Positions 175 through 21,600 of a stretch of 64,000 nucleotides of DNA are shown here, piece after piece. Numbering within the stretch: the stretch's first letter is position 1; each line of letters begins with the position of its first letter. Position numbers and translations under genes: made by a program. The DNA is taken from positions 1-64,000 of the forward strand of contig NZ_VLPL01000005.1 of NCBI RefSeq assembly GCF_007558725.1, given 5' to 3'. This DNA comes from Fluviicola chungangensis. Lineage in GTDB: Bacteria > Bacteroidota > Bacteroidia > Flavobacteriales_D > Crocinitomicaceae. Below the pieces are notes generated by a model. It was given only the letters and a program-made list of their open reading frames with translations. It searched no databases and was not told the DNA's origin.

Positions 175-1230
175 CTATAAGTTAGCCTGTATAGCGCACA
201 GCTCTGGTTGTGCGCTATTTTTTTCTTTGAAAGTCGGATCAAAGAAGGTTTTGTTTCTGAATAAGATAAAACACAATTCTAATAATCTTCTCTCAATGGC
301 AATCAATGCCTTTTTCTTAATGCCCTGTTTCTGAACTATTCTTGTGTAAATTTCTTTGTATTTTTCATTACTTCTTACCGCTGCAATTGCAGGTAAATAC
401 ATCGCTTTTCTGATATGTTTGTTTCCCTTTTTTGATATTTTAGATAAACCTCTTATTGAGGTTCCTGATTGCTTTTCTTTTACGTCCAGTCCTGCATAAC
501 TAGCTAGTTGCTTTTTATTGCGGATTAATTCAAAACCATTGGTTTCAGCAAGTAGTATTACGGCAGTTAAACGTCCTATTCCTGGAACGCTAGTCATGTA
601 TTCAATTTCCTGATTAATGTCAGGATTTTTGAGAACCACCTGTTCAATATCTGCTTTGATTTCGGATTCTTGTTTATTGAGAAAATTGATTCGTTGTTTC
701 AATCGCTTAATGGTTCTTAACAGAGGGTATGCTTCTTTTTCTTCCGCGTGAAGCTGGTTCTTTATCGCAGATCTTTCAGATACAAGTTGATCTCGTTCAC
801 GGGTGAGCTGGCGCAACTTTTTGTAGGATTCTTTTGGTGGGTTCCAATCATCCAGTTTACGCTCTAACCCGAACCGAGCAATTGCTTCAGAACACGTTTT
901 ATCATTAACGCTTTTAATCGTTAAGGTCCGCATGAAGCTACTCATCTTGTTAGGCAGAATAATACTTAAAGAATGTCCCTTACTATGCAAGAAATATGCT
1001 AATTTCTCATGATAAACACCCGTTGCTTCCATGACAAACCGAATCGCAATGGACGAATCTAGTTTGTCATTCATAAACTGCAAGAGTTTCATAAATCCAG
1101 CCTCAGTATTCTTGAAAGAACATTGGAACAAAAGGTGTATATCCATTGATTCGGACATCTTTCCAAAAGTAACGTCCAAGGTTTTTAGTGAGACGTCAAT
1201 ACCTACGCTCTGCCTGATGATTTTCTCCAT
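175..1230 (-). CDS. IS110-family transposase (DEDD recombinase)
   Basis: Transposase of the IS110 group, which in characterised members cuts and joins DNA with a RuvC-like DEDD domain guided by a bridge RNA. The N-terminal domain shows GIDVS (first acidic residue) and MEATGVY (the conserved Glu region). The C-terminal Transposase_20 part shows SVPGIG and later SGTSIRGLSKISKKGNKHIRK, which carries the conserved serine. About 351 residues, normal for the family. I chose the ATG at 1230: the 21 extra codons possible upstream lie outside the family fold, and MEKIIRQSVGIDVS is a typical start. The gene appears intact. No terminal inverted repeats are expected in this family, so the element ends cannot be placed from one copy. 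Confidence 0.9.
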   Translation of the reverse strand: MEKIIRQSVGIDVSLKTLDVTFGKMSESMDIHLLFQCSFKNTEAGFMKLLQFMNDKLDSSIAIRFVMEATGVYHEKLAYFLHSKGHSLSIILPNKMSSFMRTLTIKSVNDKTCSEAIARFGLERKLDDWNPPKESYKKLRQLTRERDQLVSERSAIKNQLHAEEKEAYPLLRTIKRLKQRINFLNKQESEIKADIEQVVLKNPDINQEIEYMTSVPGIGRLTAVILLAETNGFELIRNKKQLASYAGLDVKEKQSGTSIRGLSKISKKGNKHIRKAMYLPAIAAVRSNEKYKEIYTRIVQKQGIKKKALIAIERRLLELCFILFRNKTFFDPTFKEKNSAQPELCAIQANL

Positions 1231-1440
1231 ATTGTTGTTTTTTATTTTACTCGCTCCGTGATTTCTTCTTTCACTTTTGTCTCCTGTTGACATTCAGAAT
1301 ATCGCGCATGATGCCGATTTCTTACATTCTTGTTCAAAGTCTGAGAAGAATAAAAAGAATGAGGTAATCTCTATACATCAGCATACTTCCTAAAGAGTTG
1401 CTTTGTGGTAAGCCACACTCTCATTCTTTTCACTTCGCTT
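1231..1440 (-). ncRNA. Possible bridge RNA region of the IS110 element
   Basis: Non-coding stretch directly upstream of the transposase start, the place where IS110 elements outside the IS1111 group encode their bridge RNA. A perfect 11-bp inverted repeat, AAAAGAATGAG at 1353-1363 and CTCATTCTTTT at 1420-1430, encloses about 56 bases. Inside it, TGTGG/CCACA at 1404-1408 and 1413-1417 form a small hairpin with a TAAG loop. This suggests a structured RNA. I cannot identify the guide loops or the exact ends. The rest, to 1533, shows nothing recognisable. Confidence 0.3.
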
Positions 1441-1709: not shown

Positions 1710-2963
1710 TTAGCTGATTTTGGTTAGTGATTTTTGGGGTAATTGTGAAAGTTTGTCTTTCAAAGCATTCATATCCTCGCTGACTTTCTTTTCTACGACC
1801 TTTGCATAAATTTGAGTGGTCCGAATATTTCTATGGCCAAGCATGGAACTTACGGTTTCAATAGGAACACCATTCGCGAGCGTTACAGTTGTAGCAAAGG
1901 TATGGCGAGCAATATGCGAGGTCAATTTCTTTTTGATGCCACAGATTTCTACTATTTCTTTCAGATACGAATTATAGCGTTGATTGCTATTTACCGGTAA
2001 CAGCTTGTTGTACTTTTTACAGTATTCGTGATCCTGGTATTTTTCAATTATTTCCAAAGGAATTGGAAGCAATGGAACGCTTTCTTTGGTTCCGGTCTTT
2101 TGGCGAGCAGTAGCGAGCCAAAAATTACCGTCTAATCCTTTCATTACCGCGTCATGGGTAAACTCGTAGACATCTGCATAGGCGAAGCCGGTGTAACAGC
2201 AGAAAACGAATACATCCCGAACTTCAATCAACCGATCGGAATGCAGTTTCTTTTTCATGATGAGGTATAATTCTTCCTGGTTTAGAATTTCTCTTTCCGG
2301 ATTGGTATATGAACACTTGAATTGATTGAATGGATTTGAAGGAATCCAATCTAAACCAACGGCCATGTTCATGATCTTTTTAAGGTTCTTGATGTATTTG
2401 TGTGCCGTATTTGATTGGATGAGCTCGACGGTTAAAAGGTAATGTTCGAACTCGGTGATAAATGCCAGGCGCAATTCCGGAAGTGGTTTGTCATTTACCT
2501 TATATTGCTTCTTCATGAAGTTTTCGACCTTGTTTCGAGTAATAACGTAACGCTCATAAGTCTTTTTTACAATTTGTTTCGCTGTTACTTTCTCGAGCAT
2601 TTTCAAATTATGATAATCGAAAGCTTCGAGGATAGATTTATAGGCTGGCAATTCTTCTTTTCCGAGAAACCGGTTTTTGATGATGACTGCAGTAATTCTA
2701 TTGGCCGTTGAGTGTGCTTTTAAAAACTCCTGGTTGATGAAGTTTACCGTTCTGTCAATGTAGCCGTTGATATAGGCTGCATCTTTTGATAGTGCTTTCA
2801 CTCGGCTTTTCTTGGCATCCCAATTTACAGCTTCAACGAAATGACGGGAAGAAATCTCTGCTTTTACGCCATCAACATAAATCCGGATGTAAACCGGTAG
2901 TTTCCCGTCTCTCGCTTTTTGCTGATTCAATCTTACCTTGATGGCTAATTTTTGATTGTTCAT
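1710..2963 (-). CDS. Tyrosine recombinase, Bacteroidota integrase type
   Basis: Site-specific recombinase of 417 residues. The N-terminal part (about 1-80) looks like the Arm-DNA-binding domain common in Bacteroidota integrases, followed by a SAM-like core-binding domain and a catalytic domain. Catalytic residues seen: Lys289 in RQKTGT, His350-x-x-Arg353, His377 in GHRN and nucleophile Tyr386. The first catalytic Arg is replaced by alanine (CYTGFAYADV, Ala261), comparable to IntDOT, which has Ser there. Start at 2963 gives MNNQKLAIKV, the usual start for the family; the 20 upstream codons look non-coding. It is transcribed away from the tRNA-Lys copy and followed by the SymE-like gene. It may integrate an element to the left of the window or be a remnant. 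Confidence 0.85.
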   Translation of the reverse strand: MNNQKLAIKVRLNQQKARDGKLPVYIRIYVDGVKAEISSRHFVEAVNWDAKKSRVKALSKDAAYINGYIDRTVNFINQEFLKAHSTANRITAVIIKNRFLGKEELPAYKSILEAFDYHNLKMLEKVTAKQIVKKTYERYVITRNKVENFMKKQYKVNDKPLPELRLAFITEFEHYLLTVELIQSNTAHKYIKNLKKIMNMAVGLDWIPSNPFNQFKCSYTNPEREILNQEELYLIMKKKLHSDRLIEVRDVFVFCCYTGFAYADVYEFTHDAVMKGLDGNFWLATARQKTGTKESVPLLPIPLEIIEKYQDHEYCKKYNKLLPVNSNQRYNSYLKEIVEICGIKKKLTSHIARHTFATTVTLANGVPIETVSSMLGHRNIRTTQIYAKVVEKKVSEDMNALKDKLSQLPQKSLTKIS

Positions 2964-3002
2964 GATAAATTCTTTAACGATTAGTTCAAGAATTCGCCTG
3001 AA

Positions 3003-3150
3003 AATAGGTGACAAGAAACACAAGATTTTACGACCTTTTCACCCGTTACACTTACCAAGTCAAATCCATGAAAGGCAGACCAATTAAGCGTTAGCGCAAT
3101 TTCTGTCACCTAATTAACGAAATAAAAATTGGTGACAGAATAGGTGACAA
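3003..3150. repeat. Cluster of GGTGACA repeats upstream of the recombinase
   Basis: GGTGACA occurs at 3007-3013, 3131-3137 and 3143-3149, and its complement TGTCACC at 3104-3110. The middle copies form a perfect 10-bp inverted repeat (TTCTGTCACC 3101-3110, GGTGACAGAA 3131-3140). Repeats of this kind next to an integrase gene are candidate arm-type or operator sites. This is inference; nothing in the sequence shows which protein binds. Confidence 0.4.
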
Positions 3151-3272: not shown

Positions 3273-3284
3273 CTTGTTTTTCAG

Positions 3285-3357
3285 TGATCCCGCTGGGATT
3301 CGAACCCAGGACCCATACATTAAAAGTGTATTGCTCTACCAGCTGAGCTACGGAATC
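3285..3357 (-). tRNA. tRNA-Lys (UUU), left copy
   Basis: A complete cloverleaf of 73 bases on the minus strand: acceptor GATTCCG/CGGGATC, D stem GCTC/GAGC, anticodon stem ATACA/TGTAT with loop CTTTTAA (anticodon UUU), T stem CTGGG/CCCAG, discriminator A, CCA not encoded. It is identical to the copy at 10254-10326. No TAnnTTTG box is visible upstream (3358-3420), unlike the right copy, so this copy is probably the one separated from the native promoter by the island and may be silent or only read through. Confidence 0.9.
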
Positions 3358-3429
3358 TTTATCAGGCATTTATAACCAAAAGGCACACTCATTAAAAATT
3401 TGAGTGTAGAGGGGATATCGTACCTAACT

Positions 3430-3454
3430 GTCCCTTTAATCGTCCCTTGTCCCT
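3430..3454 (+). repeat. GTCCCT direct repeats, left end (candidate arm sites)
   Basis: GTCCCT at 3430-3435, 3442-3447 and 3449-3454, just upstream of the island integrase. The same hexamer recurs in the same orientation at the other island end, with the same 12-base spacing between the first two copies. This fits arm-type integrase binding sites; the assignment is inference. Confidence 0.5.
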
Positions 3455-3485
3455 AGCCAAAAATCAACAATCAAAATCCATAGTT

Positions 3486-4706
3486 ATGAAAATTGCAATT
3501 CGTCAGAAAGAGGGAATGAACTACCTGTACGCTGACATTTCCGTTTCAGGAATCAGAGTAAAAAGCACTCTTGGCATTTCTGTAAAACCCAATGAATTCA
3601 ACCCTAAAACGCAAACTGTGAAAGGTGGAGCAAACCACACAACCAATGTTCTAATCCAACAAATGAAAACGGAAATCATGGACTTGATACGATGTTTACA
3701 AAAGGACGGCGATTTGAACCGAGAAAACATCAAACAAGGTCTTGAAAAGCTTCGTAGTGGAACAACAGATGCGACCATCGAGAAAGCAAACGATTCCTTA
3801 GTTCTTTTTGCCACGGAACACATTCAAAGAACCCGTGAACTAAAGAAAGGTGCTACAATCAGACACATTGGAGTAACGCTTAACAAGTTGAAAGCTTTTG
3901 AAAAACACACGAAATCGACTTTGACTTTCGACAACGTTGACATGAAATTCTACGATTCGTTTGTGTCTTACTGTACAACGATAGAAAAGTTGTCGGTTAA
4001 CACCATAGGTTCACACGTCAAGAACGTTAAAATGTGGATGAATTCGGCTTTACTGGATGGCTTACATACGAACACCGTACACCAACACAGAGCATTCAAG
4101 AAAGTAACAGAGGAATCCGATACCATCTACTTGAACGAGAGCGACATTAAGCGACTAATCGACAAAGACCTACCGTCCGAGCGTTTGGAACAGGTACGTG
4201 ATTTGTTTGTGTTGGCTTGCTACACGGGAGTTAGGATTCAGGACTACAAGAAGTTGAACCGCTTCCATTTGGTGAATGATGGTACAATGTTCAAGATACG
4301 AACGGAGAAGACAGGTGCGGAAGTTATTATCCCTCTTCATGTGGAGGCTAAGAAAATACTAATGCGTTACAACGGAACACCAAAGGTAATTTCCAACCAA
4401 AAGTTCAACAACTACTTAAAGGAACTGTGTCGTTTTGTCGGTATTGACGAATTAGTACAAATAACCAGAACAGTAGCGGGTAAAAGAACCACCTCAATTT
4501 GTCCGAAACACGAATTAGTTTCATCGCACACAGCGAGAAGGAGTTTCGCTACGAATGCCTACAAAGCAGGAGTTCCAACACTTGCAATCATGGCAATTAC
4601 AGGACACACAACAGAGAAGGTGTTTTTAAGATATGTTCGAGTGAGTAAGGAGGAACACGCAAGTTTGGTTAGTCAACATGGTTTCTTTAAAGGAAACGTC
4701 GCTTAA
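3486..4706 (+). CDS. Island integrase (tyrosine recombinase)
   Basis: A 406-residue tyrosine recombinase with a beta-rich arm-binding N terminus, a SAM-like core-binding domain and a catalytic domain. Catalytic set complete: Arg250 in TGVRIQDY, Lys in EKTGAEV, His348-x-x-Arg351 in SHTARRSF, His in TGHTTEKV, and Tyr383. It sits 128 bases from the left tRNA-Lys copy and reads into the island, the classical place for the enzyme that integrates and excises a tRNA-targeted island. Start at the ATG 3486 (MKIAIRQKEG); a TTG 39 bases upstream would give a longer form but falls inside the GTCCCT repeats. It keeps the first Arg that the neighbouring recombinase at 1710-2963 has lost, so the two are not recent duplicates. 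Confidence 0.92.
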   Translation: MKIAIRQKEGMNYLYADISVSGIRVKSTLGISVKPNEFNPKTQTVKGGANHTTNVLIQQMKTEIMDLIRCLQKDGDLNRENIKQGLEKLRSGTTDATIEKANDSLVLFATEHIQRTRELKKGATIRHIGVTLNKLKAFEKHTKSTLTFDNVDMKFYDSFVSYCTTIEKLSVNTIGSHVKNVKMWMNSALLDGLHTNTVHQHRAFKKVTEESDTIYLNESDIKRLIDKDLPSERLEQVRDLFVLACYTGVRIQDYKKLNRFHLVNDGTMFKIRTEKTGAEVIIPLHVEAKKILMRYNGTPKVISNQKFNNYLKELCRFVGIDELVQITRTVAGKRTTSICPKHELVSSHTARRSFATNAYKAGVPTLAIMAITGHTTEKVFLRYVRVSKEEHASLVSQHGFFKGNVA

Positions 4707-4748: not shown

Positions 4749-5030
4749 ATGGAAAGAGAAGAAAGACACGCACGTATAGTAGAGTTTCTAAATTCATTGA
4801 AGAACACAGAAGGTAATCCGGCATTTAAGCTGAAAACCTACAAGAAACTACGAGATCGTGGTGTACTTGAAAAAACACTTGACTACCAAGAAGTATGTGA
4901 AATGACGCCGCTAATTTGTGAGGCATTTGGAATAATGAGTGGTTCGGCAGGAGATATTGACTTTTACCGTTTGTTTCAATCCTATTTGCTTGACAAAGAT
5001 AAACGCGAACAAATAAATCAAATTATCTAA
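4749..5030 (+). CDS. Hypothetical island protein
   Basis: A 93-residue charged, mostly helical-looking protein with no signal peptide or membrane segment. I do not recognise the family. The start at ATG 4749 (MEREERHAR) is preferred; a TTG at 4716 would add 11 residues. It lies 42 bases after the integrase and points the same way, so it may share its transcript and could be an excision or regulatory partner; there is no motif to support that. Its last 8 bases overlap the end of the convergent XRE gene. Confidence 0.6.
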   Translation: MEREERHARIVEFLNSLKNTEGNPAFKLKTYKKLRDRGVLEKTLDYQEVCEMTPLICEAFGIMSGSAGDIDFYRLFQSYLLDKDKREQINQII

Positions 5031-5223
5031 ACTGGTTTAAATCAGTACCAAAGTAGTCAGCCAATTTACAAAGCGTGGTAAACGAAATATCACGCTTTCC
5101 TTGTTCTATTCTACCAAGGTGAATTCCCGTGTCGTTGTACACATCTTCCTGTGTTAAGCCTTTCTCATTCCTCAACTCTTTAACCCGTTTCGCAAGGGTC
5201 AACAATAATTCATGTTTGTTCAT
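5023..5223 (-). CDS. XRE-family helix-turn-helix regulator
   Basis: A 66-residue protein that is essentially one HTH_3 domain: LTQEDVYNDTGIHLGRIEQG is the helix-turn-helix, followed by ISFTTLCKLADYFGTDL. Such single-domain Cro/C1-like proteins usually repress promoters on the same element. It is divergent from the exported-protein pair (5302-6140) and convergent with 4749-5030. The repeated ATGACCGAA around its start codon is a plausible operator, so it may control both itself and the genes to the right. Confidence 0.85.
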   Translation of the reverse strand: MNKHELLLTLAKRVKELRNEKGLTQEDVYNDTGIHLGRIEQGKRDISFTTLCKLADYFGTDLNQFR

Positions 5224-6741: not shown

Positions 6742-7098
6742 ATGAACATATTAGGTAGAGAATTTCTCAACAATACCGATGGTGGCTTGCAAATATTTCG
6801 CAAGTACCTCGAACATACATTTGTAGTGAGCGAACCAACGACAGTAGGTGAAAGAAAATTTACAGTTGCTTGGAATGAACGCTACGGTAATTATGCAATT
6901 TATGTTAGTTGCTTATCCAATGGAAAATGGGAAACAACCGATCGGCTGAATGCTATATGGTTTGTAAAAGAAAAATTTGGTCTTACAGAAGAAGAGACCT
7001 ACACAAAAATTAATCGGGAGATGAATCTAGGTATTCTACAAGAAGAACAACCAAAAGTGGTTGTACCAACGAAACGTCCTCCAATTACATTTAGTTAA
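6742..7098 (+). CDS. Small protein coupled to the replication gene
   Basis: A 118-residue protein of unknown family with a central mixed alpha/beta part (KFTVAWNERYGNYAIYVSC) and a proline-rich tail. The stop (7096-7098) is one base before the start of the DUF3987-type gene, so translation is coupled. In Bacteroidota mobile elements, DUF3987-like proteins are often preceded by a primase-type or zinc-finger partner; this protein holds that place but shows no CHC2 or Toprim signature. Start at ATG 6742; an upstream GTG at 6646 would add 32 residues. Confidence 0.6.
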   Translation: MNILGREFLNNTDGGLQIFRKYLEHTFVVSEPTTVGERKFTVAWNERYGNYAIYVSCLSNGKWETTDRLNAIWFVKEKFGLTEEETYTKINREMNLGILQEEQPKVVVPTKRPPITFS

Positions 7099-7099
7099 A

Positions 7100-8434
7100 A
7101 TGAAAAACATTGAAAATCATAACAATTGTAAAATGACAGAAAATGTTTTAATAGAAGACGACAACATCGACATTTCGACAAGTCGTCAAAACACCGAGGA
7201 TGATCAATCCCTAAACTTCAAATCTTTGCCATTGATGTTGCAAAATGTTTGCTCGTCCTTTGATGACCAGTACAAGGAAATGATGTTACTGAGTGCTATC
7301 ACAGTAATTAGTAGTGTTATGCCTAACGTATATGGCACTTATGACAAACAACGTGTATACCCTAATTTATTCCTTTATGTTCTTGGTAAGGCAGGTTCTG
7401 GAAAAGGGAATTTAGTATGGTCAAGAAGGCTTCTATCCGTTATTGAGCAGAGTAAACCAGAGGCAAAAACTGGTGGTTTGCTTCAAAGGTTAATTGAAGA
7501 CCCGAAAGCATTGCAAATACCTGATAAAATAATCATTCCAGCCAACAACTCTTCTGCGGGGTTTATCAAGATCCTCAATGAACGGGGAGGTAAAGGACTG
7601 TTATTTGAAACTGAAGGTGATACAATTGCCAACGTTTTCAAATCAGATTACGGTGATTATTCAGAAATGCTAAGAAAAGCATTCCATCATGAACCCATCA
7701 CTTCTTACCGCAAAACAGATAATGTTCTTGTGGATCTAGAAGAACCAAAAATATCGGTAGTGATTTCTAGTACTCCGAATCAGTTAAAAAGAGTCATTTC
7801 CAATGCGGAAAATGGTTTGTTCAGCCGATTCATGTACGTTCTTACTGAACCGATTGAAGAGTTCCTAGATGTATTTGCTAGTGGTGAACAGGACAGAACC
7901 CAACAGTTTCAAGATGTAGCGAAGGAGTTATCGAAATTGTACCAAACACTTTTACGAAGCGAAGGTATTCGATTCTCTTACACATTAGAGCAAGGAAAGG
8001 AGTTCTTAAACTTCTTTGGGAAGAATAAATCTCTTCTTACCAATCTTTTTCATGAAGACCTTGATGGCTCGGTTAATCGAATGGGGTTAATAACCTTTCG
8101 AATTTCGATGATACTTACCGTGTTGAGAAACATGGATTCTCTCGAAACGGACAAGTTAGTATGTGGCGACGAAGATTTCCATACCTCTTTGAAATTGGCA
8201 GAAAAACTATTGTTGAATGCCAACAAGGTAATGGAAATACTACCGTACCAAACAGAAGATGAGTTGAGTGGAAAGAAGCTACAAATTTTCCAATTGCTTC
8301 CAGACGAATTCACAACGTCAGAAGCCAAGGAAATGGGTAGTCGATTTGGTATGTCCGATCGTACTACTGACCGCTTCTTGAAAACTGCTTGCTTTGAAAA
8401 GACAGCACACGGCGCTTACAAAAAGGTAGCGTAA
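7100..8434 (+). CDS. DUF3987-family P-loop protein (probable replication helicase)
   Basis: A 444-residue protein of the DUF3987 kind found on plasmids, integrated elements and phages of Bacteroidota, generally considered a helicase or primase-helicase of the element. Walker A is GKAGSGKGN at residues 96-104; an acidic strand with GLLFETEGD follows, and ISVVISSTPNQL precedes the arginine-bearing FSRFMYV. The C terminus resembles a winged helix (TSEAKEMGSRFGMSDRTTDR). Start at ATG 7100, one base after the preceding stop; a frame opening at 7061 would overlap that gene. It is the only replication-type gene in the island, so the excised form may replicate or prime with it. No primase active site is visible. 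Confidence 0.75.
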   Translation: MKNIENHNNCKMTENVLIEDDNIDISTSRQNTEDDQSLNFKSLPLMLQNVCSSFDDQYKEMMLLSAITVISSVMPNVYGTYDKQRVYPNLFLYVLGKAGSGKGNLVWSRRLLSVIEQSKPEAKTGGLLQRLIEDPKALQIPDKIIIPANNSSAGFIKILNERGGKGLLFETEGDTIANVFKSDYGDYSEMLRKAFHHEPITSYRKTDNVLVDLEEPKISVVISSTPNQLKRVISNAENGLFSRFMYVLTEPIEEFLDVFASGEQDRTQQFQDVAKELSKLYQTLLRSEGIRFSYTLEQGKEFLNFFGKNKSLLTNLFHEDLDGSVNRMGLITFRISMILTVLRNMDSLETDKLVCGDEDFHTSLKLAEKLLLNANKVMEILPYQTEDELSGKKLQIFQLLPDEFTTSEAKEMGSRFGMSDRTTDRFLKTACFEKTAHGAYKKVA

Positions 8435-8857: not shown

Positions 8858-9049
8858 ATGAAAACACAACTAGTTTATGCGGAGATTTTAGATTTCATTA
8901 CTCCAACTATGCGAGAAGACCCACTTGTACAAATTGTTTCGGACACAGGCGTATTCATCGTTACCACCGTTGAAAATTCAAAGCAATATCCATTGGATTT
9001 CTATCCTGTAAGTACAGAGGCTATGGAAGCTTACAATTTGAAACAGTAG
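8858..9049 (+). CDS. Hypothetical small protein
   Basis: A 63-residue acidic protein (MKTQLVYAEILDF start) with no family I recognise, no signal peptide and no membrane segment. The ATG at 8858 is chosen over an upstream start at 8723, whose translation through the C-run region looks non-coding. It ends 9 bases before the end of the convergent protease gene, in the accessory part of the island. Confidence 0.5.
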   Translation: MKTQLVYAEILDFITPTMREDPLVQIVSDTGVFIVTTVENSKQYPLDFYPVSTEAMEAYNLKQ

Positions 9050-9058
9050 GATATATTA

Positions 9059-9823
9059 TCAATTTGGAAAATAGTTAGTTGCCAACGATTCAAACACGTA
9101 ATTACACTTTTCTTCGATTGTTTCAAATGTGTTAAACTTCGAATAGTTCATGTTAAGGTTATAAGACCCATTGTAAAAAAGCACCACGTCAAATAACGGA
9201 TCCATTACCAAAAATCTCGCAACTTGAAACCGAATAACCTCTCCTAGCACAGTTTCAACATCTTTGATTCTCATTGTTGTACTAGGACTGCTCTTGTTGA
9301 ATGCAACAAATGCACTATATATCTCTCGTTTTTTGATGATTTCTTCATACAACAAATTATTATCCGCAATAATATCCGAATTATTGAGAGCATATAATGA
9401 TGCCATAAACGATTTGTATGGTGCTGTTTTATTTAGGGTTTTACCAATTTCTAAAGCAACATGCATTCCAAAACAAGTAGCTAAATGCAAATGCAATTTG
9501 TTCTTCGTCTTGAGGTTAATCAGCATTAAGCAAGCCTCTAACTCTTTCCAACTTATTGTGTCCCCATTGGATAAAACCATACTTGTTTTATCGGTCGCCC
9601 CATGTGCTTCAATATGGAGAATTACTTCATCATCATCTTGAACCTCGTTTTCAATAGTTTTCAGTACATCCAACAAATCAATCTTCGAATTAATCGTTGT
9701 AAGTGAATGCAATAAATCAGGTGCATAAAATTGACAGTACTTAGAAATCGTATCATTGTACAACTCCGTCCCTGTTTGGCGTTCATTAGTAAGACTTTCA
9801 AGAACGTAAATTCGTGTTATCAT
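9059..9823 (-). CDS. Caspase/CHAT-like cysteine protease, putative defence effector
   Basis: A 254-residue protein with the two signatures of clan CD peptidases: VILHIEAHGATD (His74-Gly75) at the end of one hydrophobic strand, and LHLHLATCFGMH (Cys117) at the end of the next, with the SNGDTISWKELE segment between them as in caspase-like and CHAT domains. These would be the His/Cys catalytic pair. No signal peptide, so cytoplasmic. The region after residue 130 is unassigned. It starts 3 bases after the stop of the small membrane protein gene upstream (9827-10114), so the pair forms an operon next to the right att site. Caspase-like proteases act in known bacterial suicide systems (gasdermin-linked proteases, CHAT proteases of type III CRISPR), but I know no described system with this exact pair. 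Substrate unknown. Confidence 0.65.
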   Translation of the reverse strand: MITRIYVLESLTNERQTGTELYNDTISKYCQFYAPDLLHSLTTINSKIDLLDVLKTIENEVQDDDEVILHIEAHGATDKTSMVLSNGDTISWKELEACLMLINLKTKNKLHLHLATCFGMHVALEIGKTLNKTAPYKSFMASLYALNNSDIIADNNLLYEEIIKKREIYSAFVAFNKSSPSTTMRIKDVETVLGEVIRFQVARFLVMDPLFDVVLFYNGSYNLNMNYSKFNTFETIEEKCNYVFESLATNYFPN

Positions 9824-9826
9824 AAT

Positions 9827-10114
9827 TCATTTCTTTTGTTTCGTGAAATAGTGTTCAAAGTACTTACGAACGTCAACATCTTTACTGGCATTGCGAACAT
9901 CAACCTCAAAAAAGAACTGCGCCATCATCGCGAAGAACCATAGTACATAGTTTTCCCAATCACATTGCAATTTTGGAGTAGTAACAATTTTGTAAAGCCA
10001 ATACCATCCATAGACATTATAGCCATAAATAAATAATTTTCTAAGAAAGTTAAACGCTTTGTTTAGTAGAAAGATTAGGGTTTCTTTAAAGTTTCTTTTG
10101 GGTGTTGCGTGCAT
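9827..10114 (-). CDS. Small two-helix membrane protein paired with the protease
   Basis: A 95-residue basic protein, very rich in aromatic residues. Two hydrophobic segments can be seen: residues about 27-44 (YGYNVYGWYWLYKIV) and 54-70 (NYVLWFFAMMAQFFFEV). The N terminus (KRNFK) and C terminus (TKQKK) are positively charged, which fits both ends in the cytoplasm. It is the first gene of an operon with the caspase-like protease. Possible roles are a membrane effector released or activated by the protease, an anchor for it, or a sensor. Start at ATG 10114. The GTCCCT repeats at 10155-10172 lie just upstream, so integrase binding could touch its promoter. Confidence 0.6.
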   Translation of the reverse strand: MHATPKRNFKETLIFLLNKAFNFLRKLFIYGYNVYGWYWLYKIVTTPKLQCDWENYVLWFFAMMAQFFFEVDVRNASKDVDVRKYFEHYFTKQKK

Positions 10115-10154: not shown

Positions 10155-10172
10155 GTCCCTTATTTCGTCCCT
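10155..10172 (+). repeat. GTCCCT direct repeats, right end (candidate arm sites)
   Basis: GTCCCT at 10155-10160 and 10167-10172, with the same orientation and the same 12-base spacing as at the left end. The surrounding bases also agree (TGTCCCTT-n-TCGTCCCT in both). Confidence 0.5.
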
Positions 10173-10248: not shown

Positions 10249-10253
10249 ACTTG

Positions 10254-10326
10254 TGATCCCGCTGGGATTCGAACCCAGGACCCATACATTAAAAGTGTAT
10301 TGCTCTACCAGCTGAGCTACGGAATC
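10254..10326 (-). tRNA. tRNA-Lys (UUU), right copy with native promoter
   Basis: 73 bases, identical to the copy at 3285-3357, with full cloverleaf and UUU anticodon. A good Bacteroidota promoter lies upstream (10364-10394), so this is the copy expected to be expressed. Confidence 0.93.
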
Positions 10327-10363
10327 TTATTTTTTTTCGCTACACTCATTCGTGATTGCGGGT

Positions 10364-12654: not shown

Positions 12655-15600
12655 ATGTATATGAAAAAACTACTTATTTTCCTATCATTCTCCATGATAG
12701 CTCTTACGAATTGGTCTCAGATCTCCAACGCCTGTTTCAGTTCAAGAAATGACATTTCATTTAACAAACCCTATTCAGGAAGCCGCGGTATTGTCAAAGG
12801 TGATTTTGACAGTGACGGAATTCTCGACGTTGTTCTGAGTAACTACATAAGCGGAACAAGTAAACGGTTTTCCTTTCTAAAAGGACTGGGTGACGGGAAA
12901 TTCGCGGCTGCGGTTTCATTTGGAAATTCTGGTAATCTGCCCCAGGATATCCGAAGTGCGGATTTCAACAATGACGGAAAACTGGATATCGCCTTAACCA
13001 ATCAAACCGGAATTTATATCTATCACGGCCAGGGAAATGGGGTTTTTGACAGTATAACGACCCTCACTTTTACAAATGTAAAATACATTGCTGTCGGGGA
13101 CTTTAATGAAGATGGTGCAATGGATATTGTGGGCGCCACGGGTCCACCAAGCTCTCAATTTACTTTATTCACAGGAACATTAGGTAATCCAACCTTATTT
13201 GGTTCTGCAGCATTTACAATCTCGAATCCCATCGTTAATATGGAGGTCGCCGATATGGATGGCGACAACCACCTGGATGTTGTTTCTTATACGAGCATCA
13301 GTACCGTTCATATTTCCAAAAATAACAACGGGAGTTTAGGTAACTTTTTCTCCGGCACCGCTATTTCCTCGTCTGGTTCCGGTGGAACCGATCTGACACT
13401 ATGCGATATCGATAACGACGGTGACAATGATGTAATCACTACGAATAAAACCAGTAACAATATTTCCGTATTAAAAAACAACGGTTCAGGAGTACTGTCA
13501 TCAGCAATAGTATATGCCACAGAATCAGGACCTGATGGAATCGATAATTTTGATATCAACCAGGACGGCTTCAAAGACATTGTCGTTGCAAACTTCAGTG
13601 CGAGTACAATATCCATTTTTTATGGCAGTAGCGGCGGTGCTTTAAGTTTATATCAAACGACACAAGCTGCCGGAAATCCAAAAGCATTGGTCATTGGACA
13701 TTTCAATTCGGACAGTTATCCTGACATTGTCTCTGCACAGAATAATGGAACTTATATTAATTCATTTATAGGTAATTCCACCAATAATTATTTACAAACC
13801 AACCTGTTTGATGTTGGAGCGAGTCCAAGTTCTTCTTTCGCCGGAGATTTTAATAATGACGGAAATCAGGATGTTGCATTAACTTATTCAGGGTCAGGTA
13901 CCGCTCAGATTTATCTGGGGAATGGTGCAGGAAACTTCACTGCAGGCGCTACTTTAACAACAGGAACCACACCTGTTTATATAACCGGTGCAGATCTGGA
14001 CAATTCAGGTTCGATGGATCTTGTGGTCGTAAATAACGGAAGTAACAACATTAGCGTATTTTATGGAACCGGTAGCGGTACGTTTTCTGCGGGAACAAAT
14101 TATTCGGTAGGAACAACTCCTGTACAAGCCAAGATCGGAAACCTGAACGGAGATGCTTTAGCAGATATCGTTGTCACAAATTCAGGAAGTGCCAATTTTT
14201 CAGTCTTAACTGCAAGCAGCGCGACGTCCTTTAATTCTGCCGTAAACAATACCACCAATACAACCCCATATGCCATAGCCATCATGGACTACGATCTGGA
14301 TGGTATAAACGATATCATTATTGGTCACAATGCGGCGAGTAGTTCCCTTCTTTTACGATTCAAAGGAAGTGGTACAGGTACCTTTATATCCGGTGGGAAT
14401 ATTGGGGTCGCCAATGCATATTACAACCTTGTTACGTGTTTGGAAGCAGCTGATTTGGACGGAAACGGCTTAAGTGATCTGATCGTCGGAAGAAGCGGAG
14501 TGGTCGGAAAAATCTTTAATCCAGCTGCTACAACCGGCTCAGCTTCTACAAACGAAACAACCATTATCAATAATGCACTCGGATCCGGTGCGGTTGTAGG
14601 GCTTAAAATCGTAGACGTTAACAACGATGGCAAATTAGACGTCCTGGCAGTTTATAACAATAGCACACCAACCGTTGTAGGTACATTGGTTGCAAGTGTG
14701 GCTACTGCTTTCGGAACAAATTCCGGTTATGTACTAACTCCCCCTACTGTCGGATTTGCATCAGAATTAGATGGAGCCGGTTTAGCCGCAGCAGATTTCA
14801 ACAACGATGGAAGAGTCGATGCAGTCGTTCCAAATAAGGCTTCGAACAGTTTTACCTTACATTTAAATACGACACCTGTAATCACTGCGGGCGGACCAAC
14901 TACTTTTTGCAGCGGAAACTCTGTTACACTGAATTCCACTCCAGCCACCTATTGGTATGAATGGGATCCGAACAATGAAACCACACAAGCGATTTCCGCT
15001 ACTGCAACCGGACCATATTATGTAGTGACCTCTTCTTCATGGAGTGATTGGTGTCAGGCGAAATCAGATACGATTACTGTTACGGTTACTCCTGGCCCAA
15101 CAGCACCTACGATTACTCCAGGCGGATCAACCACCTTTTGTAGCGGAGGAAACGTGGTATTAACTTCTTCCCAGACAACAGGAAATCAATGGTACAAAGA
15201 CGGTGTGCTTATTACAGGGGCTACCAACCAAAATTATACAGCAACAACTGCCGGAATTTATACCGTTACTTATACAAGTGGTGGATGTACTTCTCCGCAA
15301 TCAAGTGGAATTACGGTAACTGCAAGTGAAACTCCGATAATCACCGCAGGCGGACCAACCACTTTCTGTACAGGAGGATCTGTGGTTCTAACATCCAGCG
15401 TTACAACAAATATTTTGTGGTCGAATGGAGCAACTACGCCGTCTATTACAGTAACAACTTCCGGAAATTATTCGGTTCAAAATAATGTTGGAGGTTGCCC
15501 TACTTTAACATCAAATACAATTACGGTAACAGTTGCTGCATCATTAAGTACCCCGACCATTTCACCGGCAGGACCGGTAACACTTTGCCCGAGCGGAACT

Positions 15601-18600
15601 GTCACACTCACTTCGTCTTCTGCAACCAACAACGTATGGTCCACCGGTGCAACTACGCAATCCATTACAGTTAATACTGCGGGGTCTTATTTTGTTCATT
15701 TGGATAACGGATCCTGTACTTCAGCAAATTCAACGGCTGTTACCGTTACAAACGGCTCAGCTCCTGCTGCTCCTACAATCACTCCAGGCGGTCCGACGAC
15801 CTTCTGTGCAGGCGGATCTGTTACTCTCACTTCCAGTGCCGGAAATTCTTACTTGTGGTCAACCGGAGCTACCACTCCGTCTATCAACGTGACTACTTCA
15901 GGTTCATACACAGTTCAAGTGACTAATGCGGCAGGATGTCAAAGTACGGCAAGTGCCCCAACAGTGGTTACTGTGAATGCATTGCCTGCCGCTCCGACAA
16001 TCACTCCAGGCGGTCCGACGACCTTCTGTGCAGGCGGATCTGTTACTCTCACTTCCAGTGCCGGAAATTCTTACTTGTGGTCGACCGGAGCTACCACTCC
16101 GTCTATCAATGTGACAACCGCAGGTTCCTATACCGTGCAAGTGACCAATGCGGCAGGATGTCAAAGTACGGCAAGTACTCCAACAGTGATTACGGTGAAT
16201 ACCGCTCCAAGTGCTCCAACCATCACTCCAGGCGGTTCAACGACCTTCTGTTCAGGCGGATCAGTAACACTTACTTCCAGTGCCGGAAATTCTTACTTGT
16301 GGTCGACCGGAGCTACCACTCCGTCTATCAACGTGACTACTTCAGGTTCGTATACCGTACAAGTGACCAATGCAGCAGGATGTCAAAGTACGGCAAGTGT
16401 CCCAACAGTGGTTACAGTGAATGCATTGCCTGCCGCTCCGACAATCACTCCTGGCGGTTCAACTACCTTCTGTGCTGGCGGATCTGTTACCCTTACTTCC
16501 AGTGCCGGAAATTCTTACTTGTGGTCGACCGGAGCTATCACTCCGTCTATCAATGTGACTACTTCAGGTTCATACACAGTTCAAGTGACTAATGCGGCAG
16601 GATGTCAAAGTACGGCAAGTGCCCCAACAGTGGTTACAGTGAATGCATTGCCTGCCGCTCCGACAATCACTCCAGGCGGTCCGACGACCTTCTGTGCTGG
16701 CGGATCTGTTACCCTTACTTCCAGTGCCGGAAATTCTTACTTATGGTCGACCGGAGCCACCACTCCGTCTATCAATGTGACTACTTCAGGTTCGTATACC
16801 GTGCAAGTGACCAATGCGGCAGGATGTCAAAGTACGGCAAGTACTCCAACAGTGGTTACGGTGAATACCGCTCCAAGTGCTCCAACCATCACCCCAGGCG
16901 GTTCAACTGCTATTTGTGCAGGCGGATCAGTAACACTTACTTCCAGTGCCGGAAACTCTTACTTGTGGTCAACCGGAGCTACCACTCCGTCTATCAATGT
17001 GACAACCGCAGGTTCATATACAGTTCAAGTGACTGATGCAGCAGGATGTCAAAGTACGACAAGTGCCCCAACAGTGGTTACAGTGAATGCATTGCCTGCC
17101 GCTCCGACAATCACTCCAGGCGGTTCAACTACCTTCTGTTCAGGCGGATCTGTTACCCTCACTTCCAGTGCCGGAAATTCTTACTTGTGGTCAACCGGAG
17201 CTACCACTCCGTCTATCAACGTCACTACTTCAGGTTCATATACAGTTCAAGTCACTAATGCGGCAGGATGTCAAAGTACGGCAAGTGCTCCAACAGTGGT
17301 TACAGTGAATGCATTGCCTGTCGCTCCGACAATCACTCCAGGCGGTCCGACTACCTTCTGTGCTGGTGGATCGGTTACCCTCACTTCCAGTGCCGGAAAT
17401 TCTTACTTATGGTCGACCGGAGCTACCACTCCGTCTATCAATGTGACTACTTCAGGTTCATACACAGTTCAAGTGACTAATGCGGCAGGATGTCAAAGTA
17501 CAGCAAGTGCCCCAACAGTGGTTACGGTGAATACCGCTCCAAGTGCTCCAACCATCACTCCAGGCGGTTCAACGACCTTCTGTTCAGGCGGATCAGTAAC
17601 ACTTACTTCCAGTGCCGGAAATTCTTACTTGTGGTCGACCGGAGCTACCACTCCGTCTATCAACGTGACTACTTCAGGTTCGTATACCGTACAAGTGACC
17701 AATGCAGCAGGATGTCAAAGTACGGCAAGTGCCCCAACAGTGGTTACAGTGAATGCATTGCCTGCCGCTCCGACAATCACTCCTGGCGGTTCAACTACCT
17801 TCTGTGCTGGCGGATCTGTTACCCTTACTTCCAGTGCCGGAAATTCTTACTTGTGGTCGACCGGAGCTATCACTCCGTCTATCAACGTCACTACTTCAGG
17901 TTCATACACAGTTCAAGTGACTAATGCGGCAGGATGTCAAAGTACGGCAAGTGCCCCAACAGTGGTTACAGTGAATGCATTGCCTGCCGCTCCGACAATC
18001 ACTCCAGGCGGTCCGACGACCTTCTGTGCTGGCGGATCTGTTACCCTTACTTCCAGTGCCGGAAATTCTTACTTATGGTCGACCGGAGCTACCACTCCGT
18101 CTATCAATGTGACAACCGCAGGTTCCTATACCGTGCAAGTGACCAATGCGGCAGGATGTCAAAGTACGGCAAGTGCCCCAACAGTGGTTACGGTGAATGC
18201 ATTACCGGCAACTCCGACAATCACTGCCGGTGGGTCTACAAATATTTGTATGGGGCACACTGTTACATTGACCTCCAGTACAGGAACTTCATACTTATGG
18301 TCAACGGGTGAAACAACTCAGTCTATTACTGTCGGAACTTCCGGATCTTATACTGTACAGGTAACGAATGCTGCAGGATGTTTAAGCAATCCTAGCGCTC
18401 CTACAACTGTTACAGTAAATGTTACAGTTGCTACCCCATCCATTTTAACCAGCGGACCAACAACCTTCTGTGAAGGCGGTTCGGTTACACTGACTTGTTC
18501 TACAGGATTCTTCTTCCTATGGTCAAATGGTGTAACCACCCAATCAATTAACGTGGATACTTCCGGTACATTTACTGTACAAAGACTGAATTTCTCCGGG

Positions 18601-21600
18601 TGTCAAAGTAACCCAAGTGCACCGGTTACTGTAACTGTAAACCCACTCCCAGCTGCTCCAGTGATCACTGCCGGAGGACCAACAACATTTTGCGCAGGTG
18701 GATCCGTGACATTGACTTCCAGTGCCGGAGCATCTTATTTATGGTCAACAGGAGAAACAACTCCTTCTATCGATGTAACGACTGCGGGGGCATATTCGGT
18801 TCAAATAACGGATGTAAACGGGTGTCAAAGTGATGCCAGTGCTGCAACAAACATTACTGTAAATCCAAATCCTTCAATACCTGTTATTACAGCGAGTGGT
18901 CCAACAACATTCTGTGACGGTGGATCTGTGGTCCTAACCTCTTCTTCTGCAAGTGGGAATCTGTGGTCGACAGGAGAAACAACACAGTCCATTACAGTGA
19001 CAACATCAGGCTCTTACTCTGTGGATGTAACCAATGGTTTTGGTTGTACGACTTCGTCTGCAACAACGAATGTGACTGTGAATCCGAACCCGCCCATACC
19101 AATTATAACAGCTGGTGGCCCAACGACATTCTGTGATGGCAGTTCTGTTATATTGACCTCTTCTGCTTTAAGCGGTAATACCTGGTCAACAAGCGAAACA
19201 ACACAATCGATTACAGTAACTGCTCCGGGTTCTTATTCCGTAACTGAAACAAACGGATTTGGCTGTTCGAGTTCTTCGATCCCAACAAGTATTACTGTGA
19301 ACCCAATCCCTGCAATTCCAACTATTACAGCCGGTGGGTCAACTACTTTCTGTGACGGTGGTTCAGTGGTACTGACTTCTTCTGCTGCCAGCGGAAACCT
19401 TTGGTCAACGGGAGAGACAACGCAGTCTATTACCGTTACCACAAGCGGCTCATATACCGTAGAAGAAATCCAAGCCGGATGTTCTTCCGGACCATCTGCC
19501 AGTGAAACAATCACTGTAAATCCGAATCCTTCGGTTCCGACAATTACTCCTGCAAGTTCGACAACGTTCTGTGACGGAGGATCAGTAGTCTTGACTTCTT
19601 CTGCTTCAACCGGAAATATGTGGTCTACAGGCGAAACTACCCAATCGATTACAGTAACCGTCTCAGGATCTTATTCTGTTGATGTTACCAATGGTTTCGG
19701 TTGTACCACTTCATCTGGGTCTCCAACGATAGTAACCGTTAACCCGATTCCACCGGTTCCGTCCATTACAGCCGGAGGACCAACTACATTCTGTTCAGGT
19801 AACGCTGTTGTGCTGACTTCTTCTGCTTCAACCGGAAATGTGTGGTCTACAGGGGAAACTACCCAGTCAATTACGGTATCGACTTCAGGTTCTTATACAG
19901 TTGAGCAAATCTTGCTAGGATGCTCTTCCGGCTCTTCTATTCAAACAGACATCTTAGTCAACCCTACTCCTGCAACTCCAACGATTACAGCGGGTGGTCC
20001 AACTACTTTCTGTACAGGTGGTTCAGTTGTATTAACTTCAACAGCAGGAACAGCTTATTTGTGGTCAACAGGGGAAACAACTCAATCTATTACGGTAACA
20101 GCTTCCGGTTCTTACTCCGTAACGATTATTGACGGACCGTGTTCTTCAGCTTCTTCGAATGTCATTAGTGTTACGGTGAATCCGATTCCTGTTGCTCCAA
20201 CTATTACTGCAGGTGGGCCGACCACTTTCTGTACCGGAGGATCCGTTGTATTGACCTCTTCGTCAAGTACCGGAAATATGTGGTCCACTGGAGCTACAAC
20301 TCAATCAATCACAGTTTCTTCCAGTGGAACTTACACCGTTAATTTAACTGTATTGGGATGTACAAGCCCGAACGCAAGTCAAACAATTACAGTGAATCCT
20401 ATTCCGGCTGCACCAAGTGTAACGGCAGGAGGCCCAACTACATTTTGTGCCGGTAGTTCCGTTGTTTTAACTTCTTCTGCCAGTTCTGGAAATACCTGGT
20501 CCACAACAGAAACAACGCAATCCATTACGGTAACTGCCAGTGGTTCATACACAGTTACCCAGACCTTATTGGGTTGTACATCTCCGGCTTCGGCTCCCGT
20601 TAACGTCATCGTAAACACCATTCCGTCTGTTCCAACGATTACTGCCAGCGGACCAACAACCTTCTGTGCAGGAGGATCGGTTACATTGACCTCATCTTCT
20701 GCCACGAATAACTTCTGGTCTAACGGAGCGACAACACAGTCTATTACGGTAAGTTCTTCCGGAACATTCCTGGTACAGGTAATTACGAACGGATGTAGCT
20801 CAGGAACTTCTGCACCGAAAACAGTAACGGTCAATCCATTACCACCTGCCCCAACTATTGTTACGGGAACAACCGAATCCATTTGTGCCGGTTCTTCCGT
20901 TACATTAACGTCCTCATCAACTGGTGGCAATGTTTGGTCAACCGGTGCTACAACACAATCAATTACCGTTTCTACGGCCGGTTCCTATTATGTAACCGTA
21001 ACAGATGGTAACGGATGTACTTCTCCGGCTTCTCCTACAACTGTTGTAACGGTGAATCCGCTTCCGGCTGCACCGGTTATCAGTGCAAACGGACCAACTA
21101 CTTTCTGTTCGGGAGGTTCTGTGGTGCTTACTTCGTCCTATAGCTCGAATAACTTGTGGTCAAGCGGATCAACTGCAAACTCAATCACGATAAGCAGTAA
21201 CGGAACATACACTGTTACCCATACAGATGCAAACGGATGTGTTTCTCCTACCTCGGCTCCTGTAACCATCACTGTGAATTCCATTCCTGCAGCACCTGTT
21301 ATTACTGCCAGCGGACCAACTTCATTCTGTACAGGAGGATCAGTTATCCTAACGTCTTCACAGGCAACCGGAAACTCGTGGTCTACAGCGGCAATGACAC
21401 AAAGCATCACCGTCACAACAGCCGGTGTTTACAGTGTGATCTATATTGATGGAAACGGATGTGCGTCCTCTTCTTCCGCTCCGGTAGTGGTGAACGTCTT
21501 CTCGAATCCTCCAGCTCCTTCCATTTCTGCCGGCGGGGCAACAACGATCTGCCAGGGATCTTTTGTGACTTTGACCTCTTCTTATACGAGTGGAAATACT

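What the first reader, a model, noticed from the sequence alone, without database searches (positions are those of the whole stretch)
9059..10114. Two-gene caspase-like protease plus two-helix membrane protein operon, in the cargo position of a tRNA island
The protease shows a His74-Gly75 and Cys117 pair in hydrophobic-strand contexts (VILHIEAHG and LHLATCFG) as in clan CD peptidases. It is preceded, 3 bases away, by a 95-residue, aromatic-rich membrane protein with two likely helices. The operon lies at the end of the island opposite the integrase, where phage satellites and islands often carry defence genes. Known caspase-type bacterial immunity pairs a protease with a gasdermin or with a type III CRISPR signal; this small membrane partner fits neither. 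I infer an abortive-infection type system in which the protease acts on, or is controlled by, the membrane protein. I know of no published system with this pair.
Basis: partly seen in the sequence, partly recalled or inferred. Interest (0 to 1): 0.78.

Follow-up and report, generated by a model that had tools for sequence, protein, structure and literature searches.

The report
Caspase-like protease in mobile island
A small mobile DNA island in a bacterium carries a protein-cutting enzyme built like the caspases of animal cell death, next to a tiny, probably membrane-bound protein; both look like swappable cargo, and some relatives of the enzyme sit beside known anti-virus systems.

Summary
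Both genes are real: a 254-aa protease (9059-9823, -) and, 3 nt upstream, a 95-aa protein (9827-10114, -). The protease model has a caspase fold (pLDDT 84; best solved match SAVED-CHAT, then CED-3, MALT1, caspase-8); His74 and Cys117 are kept in 31 of 31 aligned members, window included. No Pfam, NCBIfam or PADLOC model matches the window protein above cut-off. Relatives are rare but broad; 8 of 32 have restriction or phage-defence genes just upstream (Gabija, HsdS, RE_endonuc, Mrr, Fic, Juk-like). The pair fills the integrase-distal slot of a 7-kb island between identical tRNA-Lys copies; in two sister islands that slot holds other genes, and one carries a BamHI-type restriction system. A dedicated pair does not: the small protein occurs at five loci in four genomes where no protease was found, one remnant lacks just the protease, and no other protease locus held has the small protein's relative, although 4 of 28 have unrelated small membrane proteins. 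Best reading: a portable immune protease combined with an independent membrane module, probably for abortive infection. Defence and cleavage are not shown.

The parts
3284..3359 (-). tRNA-Lys copy (plus 2 nt), left end of island
   Evidence: 76 nt identical to the right copy
3430..3447 (+). left copy of GTCCCTTNNNTCGTCCCT, putative integrase arm site (inference)
   Evidence: exactly two in the window, 0.13 expected
3447..4706 (+). tyrosine recombinase (integrase) of the island; start uncertain
   Evidence: Phage_integrase, Arm-DNA-bind_5
5023..5223 (-). HTH_3 regulator of the island
7061..8434 (+). DUF3987 gene of the island backbone; start uncertain
   Evidence: DUF3987 E=7.6e-43
8858..9049 (+). 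63-aa 'METQ' island gene, convergent to the protease; inner edge of the cargo slot
   Evidence: relatives in the G052, G058 and G049 islands; no Pfam or PADLOC match
9059..9823 (-). caspase-fold cysteine protease, 254 aa; H74 and C117 predicted dyad
9827..10114 (-). 95-aa aromatic-rich protein with two likely membrane helices (limits uncertain)
10155..10172 (+). right copy of the putative integrase arm site (inference)
10253..10328 (-). tRNA-Lys copy (plus 2 nt), right end of island

Best explanation
The pair is defence cargo in the integrase-distal slot of a tRNA-Lys island. The protease belongs to an unnamed family of stand-alone caspase-fold cysteine proteases (His74/Cys117) that move between genomes and settle beside different sensing systems; on infection it is switched on and cuts host or partner proteins so that the cell stops or dies before the phage matures. 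The small two-helix protein is a separate module joined here to the protease in one transcription unit; its most likely role here is to hold the protease at the inner membrane or to be its substrate there. Shown: genes, predicted fold, conserved dyad, slot, gain and loss, neighbours. Inferred: activity, trigger, abortive infection, membrane location, any contact between the two proteins.
For: Predicted caspase fold, with SAVED-CHAT and caspases as best solved matches; His after strand 3 and Cys after strand 4, kept in 31 of 31; weak Peptidase_C13 match over that stretch. 8 of 32 relatives have a defence gene within 400 bp upstream on the same strand: GajB with GajA, HsdS twice, RE_endonuc twice (one also with DrmB further up), Mrr_cat, Fic, JukA-like. 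HsdS lies that near to 2 of 23 proteases, where by a hand estimate about 0.03 or less is expected from 34 HsdS loci in about 77 Mb. Sister island with a BamHI-type restriction system. 3-nt spacing on one strand.
Against: The small protein occurs without the protease at five loci, and the protease without it at 32. The nearest relatives do not share it: L009 sits between what look by eye like ribonucleotide reductase genes with no small membrane gene, L063 has an unrelated one. Small-membrane neighbours are only marginally enriched (p 0.06). Several relatives stand alone or among housekeeping genes. Fold matches are moderate (TM about 0.5) and the sequence profile finds no significant PDB relative (best E 0.27; SAVED-CHAT 0.49). 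Neighbour scans were selective. Promoter-like sites are no more frequent than chance.
Confidence: 0.5

Rival explanations
1. Two independent cargo genes that happen to share a transcript: the small membrane protein works alone (for example like a superinfection-exclusion protein, an analogy recalled) and the protease works alone, as a one-gene defence.
For: Small protein without evident partner in L082/L091, L083 and L084, followed by an overlapping one-helix ORF in L081, and in L085 inside what looks by eye like a type I restriction operon, between a protein with an Avs4-like N-terminus and a DUF3800 protein; protease absent between the two genes in G049; protease relatives without a partner gene close by, such as a Klebsiella plasmid copy.
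Against: 3-nt spacing and shared strand; unrelated small membrane genes beside 4 of 28 other proteases.
Confidence: 0.35
2. Toxin-antitoxin-like stabilisation of the island: one protein harms cells that lose the island and the other restrains it.
For: Two small co-directional genes at an element end; islands of this kind occupy the same site in a sister genome.
Against: Each family occurs without the other, unlike a stable toxin-antitoxin pair.
Confidence: 0.08
3. The protease serves the element itself, for example by cutting a repressor to induce excision.
For: It lies in an integrative element with an HTH gene.
Against: Sister islands with the same kind of integrase and HTH gene lack it; relatives lie outside such islands.
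Confidence: 0.07

Closest known systems
Type III CRISPR SAVED-CHAT protease (PDB 8tl0)
   Same: best solved fold match (Foldseek E 6.9e-7, TM about 0.5); caspase-type core
   Different: no SAVED domain matched; 254 aa only; 10-12% identity
Canu caspase-nuclease systems (PMC12799240; passages seen)
   Same: caspase-family protease in defence loci; theme of proteases acquired by unrelated immune systems
   Different: no Ig-like domain in the model, no nuclease match in the adjacent genes; neighbour is a small membrane-like protein
Bacterial gasdermin-protease pairs (recalled; mentioned in passages of PMC12799240)
   Same: caspase-like protease encoded beside a membrane-acting partner
   Different: partner of 95 aa, two likely helices, no Pfam match
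Borvo, listed with a CHAT protease domain (PMC10952713; one table passage seen)
   Same: protease of the caspase superclass in phage defence
   Different: no PADLOC model of that name among matches at E<=1
Peptidase C13 (legumain), Pfam PF01650
   Same: weak match over the His-Cys stretch, E 0.027
   Different: 14.4 bits against a cut-off of 22.8

Membership tests
Clan CD (caspase-like) cysteine peptidases | caspase fold with catalytic His after strand 3 and Cys after strand 4 | tested here: met
   model pLDDT 84, SAVED-CHAT and caspases top; H74 follows strand 66-72, C117 follows strand 110-115; distance between them not measured
Clan CD (caspase-like) cysteine peptidases | conserved His-Gly and Cys in relatives | tested here: met
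   H74 31/31, C117 31/31, G75 30/31
Clan CD (caspase-like) cysteine peptidases | proteolytic activity | not testable with these tools
   needs an assay
Peptidase C13 / CHAT (Pfam) | score over the curated cut-off | tested here: not met
   C13 14.4 bits against 22.8 for the window; CHAT only E 0.054 in one of 16 members
DUF6642 (Pfam) | match across the family | tested here: inconclusive
   one of 16 members at E 6.2e-5, not the window protein; which member was not shown
Canu | caspase with C-terminal Ig-like fold | tested here: not met
   after residue 189 helices or low confidence
Canu | pro-nuclease gene next to the caspase | tested here: not met
   the 95-aa protein and METQ have no family match
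Gasdermin-protease system | gasdermin gene beside the protease | tested here: not met
   no Pfam match for the 95-aa partner
Type III CRISPR protease (Craspase, SAVED-CHAT) | type III effector complex or SAVED/CARF domain with it | tested here: inconclusive
   no such domain matched in the 254 aa; window and genome were not searched for cas genes or arrays
Type IV Thoeris (recalled) | TIR gene in the operon | tested here: not met
   no TIR match among eight island proteins scanned; three short island ORFs not scanned
Borvo | match to the Borvo protein | tested here: inconclusive
   none named so at E<=1; that PADLOC holds such a model was not checked

The most novel reading that the evidence does not exclude
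An undescribed family of small caspase-fold proteases is a general-purpose immune module that unrelated systems (Gabija, restriction systems, Mrr, Fic, Juk-like) have each taken up, and in this island it has been wired to a tiny two-helix membrane protein as a minimal death switch: cleavage or recruitment of the membrane protein breaches the inner membrane.
Probability: 0.2. Interest if true: 0.82.

Novelty: new variant of a known kind. Interest (0 to 1): 0.58.

Why it matters
Caspase-type proteases in bacteria are a current route to the origin of regulated cell death. This family has no settled entry in Pfam, NCBIfam or PADLOC (one of 16 members matches DUF6642 at E 6e-5), yet some members lie beside quite different defence systems. 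It would then be a caspase counterpart of the repeatedly acquired trypsin-like proteases (PMC12799240, passages seen). If the membrane partner is its substrate or anchor, it would be a far smaller membrane executioner than gasdermin, testable with two point mutants.

Tried and rejected
Rejected as chance: L005-L007 (for L005 and L007 the hit lies inside ordinary enzymes; L006 is the same hit in a sister genome and was not opened); weak small-protein hits L071/L087, L073 and L086. Nothing found: protease relatives in the phage collection with three queries or, with the window sequence, in plasmids (other members do hit plasmids); small protein in plasmids, viral contigs or 394 other genomes of the phylum (E<=1e-4, at most 13 candidates scored per genome; searches likewise scored a capped number). 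A second viral scan gave only the same locus. The top viral fold match is an uncharacterised Myoviridae protein (E 1.3e-7), not followed. A SIR2-like reading by eye of the L051 neighbour has no HMM support. Papers: none held for DUF6642 or PDC-M04, none with caspase plus small transmembrane protein terms, none for superinfection exclusion with satellite cargo; some searches gave listings. That I found no such pair in print rests in one open library. One locus stands for 16 Klebsiella plasmid records, and one Rhizobium hit (H19) was not opened. Truncated L019 and broken L023 were left out of the 31 aligned. One search tested 28 of the protease loci (29 listed; L015, L019, L023, L052 not given, L022 stood for L064).

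Full report
What is there. The window holds a 254-aa ORF at 9059-9823 (-), preceded after 3 nt by a 95-aa ORF at 9827-10114 (-). They lie between two identical 76-nt tRNA-Lys copies, 3284-3359 and 10253-10328, opposite an integrase at 3447-4706. GTCCCTTNNNTCGTCCCT occurs exactly twice in 64 kb, just inside each tRNA copy (0.13 expected); I take these for integrase arm sites. The small gene starts about 40 bp inside the right one. The genome is in the family of Fluviicola and Lishizhenia: the contigs of G124 and G074, marked same family, have the lengths of the named records L008 and L022.

The island and its slot. In G052, same genus, the same flanking genes (by eye) and tRNA-Lys hold a sister island with the same kind of integrase, HTH, DUF3987-like and METQ genes; between METQ and tRNA-Lys it has a 227-aa protein with one hydrophobic helix, and near the integrase a BamHI-type endonuclease and a methylase (PADLOC REase_II E 5.5e-61, MTase_II E 1.2e-142). 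In G058 the sister island sits between two tRNA-Gln copies, with a 245-aa protein in the slot, weakly like endonuclease VII (E 0.0013, below cut-off). Neither slot protein matches PADLOC. In G049 the small gene and METQ lie 11 bp apart next to a tRNA-Arg with an arm-site copy, and no integrase was seen by eye in the roughly 15 kb of genes listed. Against the window, the tRNA and most of the small gene (67% over 416 columns) and METQ (86% over 179) align and the protease is missing between them. Which state is older is unknown. So the end slot is a real cargo slot, and the protease comes or goes on its own.

The protease. The AlphaFold2 model from 16 sequences has pLDDT 84 and pTM 0.80, with pLDDT under 50 only at 206-231. 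Foldseek against the PDB puts SAVED-CHAT first (E 6.9e-7, TM about 0.5), then CED-3, MALT1 and caspase-8; in the viral library an uncharacterised Myoviridae protein is first, and caspase-domain proteins of giant viruses follow. By sequence profile no PDB chain is significant (best E 0.27; SAVED-CHAT 0.49). His74 follows strand 66-72 and Cys117 strand 110-115, the caspase order (recalled). H74, N103 and C117 are kept in 31 of 31 members, G75 in 30. Pfam gives the window protein only Peptidase_C13 at 14.4 bits against 22.8; over 16 members PADLOC's best E is 0.044 and NCBIfam's 0.0086, and one member matched DUF6642 at E 6.2e-5.

Spread. Counting the window there are 33 loci: 16 from one scan of 84,980 species genomes (three of them, L008, L013 and L022, are the real relatives), one viral contig, 8 further Bacteroidota genomes (9 of 395 with the window's own), two further Pseudomonadota genomes (3 of 398 with the starting one), a second copy in one genome and four plasmid records standing for 20. 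The family is rare. In a tree the window groups with L063 (Fluviicola) and L009 (Saprospiraceae) at 100/99, on long branches that the program warns about.

Company of the protease. By HMM, 8 of 32 other loci have a restriction or defence gene within 400 bp upstream on the same strand: GajB with GajA (L024, E below 1e-230), HsdS (L063, with a small gene between; L059, overlapping), RE_endonuc, which I recall from type III enzymes (L052; L055, there a short ORF, with DrmB further up), Mrr_cat (L012), Fic (L011) and JukA-like (L058, E 2e-8). L036 has annotated CBASS genes about 1.8 kb away on the other strand; L035 has a TRADD-associated 2TM domain protein downstream. I scanned chosen neighbours only, and several relatives stand alone or among housekeeping genes, among them L009, one of the two nearest. 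As a check, 22 protease-bearing genomes of about 77 Mb hold 55 Methylase_S matches, by my merging 34 loci; by a hand estimate about 0.03 or fewer of their 23 proteases should lie this near one, and 2 do. The test was chosen after seeing the data.

The small protein. Relatives: two in G049, one each in G133, G064 and G138 (the last at E 3.2e-4 but with the full motif). Six sequences share Y..YG.YW.YK and WE....W.FAM....FF. None of those four genomes gives a protease match (0 of 6 searched, with G052 and G058), though the same profile finds the window's; some are drafts. G124, G079 and G074, which have the protease, are not among the 88 genomes with even weak small-protein matches. In G138 the small gene lies in what looks by eye like a type I restriction operon, between a protein with an Avs4-like N-terminus (E 1.3e-50) and a DUF3800 protein matching PADLOC candidate PDC-M04A (E 2.3e-82), so it too can keep defence company. 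Its membrane nature is likely from two aromatic hydrophobic stretches but is not firmly shown.

Are they a pair? For: spacing of 3 nt; unrelated small membrane genes beside 4 of 28 other proteases (L063 with one helix; L017, L014, L021 with two) against 5 of 124 control genes in the same loci, p 0.06. Against: each family occurs without the other, and the protease alone is absent in G049. I judge the combination a recent assembly of two modules; whether they now work together is open.

Mechanism. By analogy with Canu, in which a caspase activates a pro-nuclease (PMC12799240, passages seen), and with CHAT proteases in defence (PMC10952713, one table passage seen), the protease is most likely an immune protease triggered on infection; that the membrane protein is its anchor or substrate I put at about one in three. 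Everything beyond fold, conservation and neighbourhood is inference.

Noticed in passing
window 8858-9049: 63-aa METQ gene, also found at the inner edge of the slot in the G052, G058 and G049 islands, with no family match; role unknown.
   Followed up: partly
L091 9414-11696 and L065 1193-3833: The same two genes (about 245 and 500 aa, unknown) lie beside the island remnant in G049 and some 1.8 kb from a protease relative in another genome, so they may be mobile cargo too (by eye).
   Followed up: no
L034 (NZ_CP125735.1) and 15 other Klebsiella plasmid records: Protease relatives of about 50% identity to the Erwinia one; 14 of the 16 plasmids are 109-138 kb, two about 400 kb. The one opened is IncFIB and recalls a phage-plasmid in size and genes (impression).
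   Followed up: partly
L093 11615-13508: BamHI-type endonuclease and a methylase in the sister island of the same genus: the island family carries restriction genes.
   Followed up: yes
window 12655-22650: A 3331-aa ORF with many near-identical repeats (WSTGATTPSI type), about 2.3 kb outside the island; a relative lies at the same place in G052.
   Followed up: no
L023 2151-6288: An apparently broken protease relative (63-aa ORF) lies downstream of a 1243-aa protein with a PIN-TPR-GreABC domain.
   Followed up: partly
window 175-1293 and 1710-3023: A transposase-like gene and a second integrase-like gene (by eye) left of the left tRNA-Lys suggest another element there.
   Followed up: no
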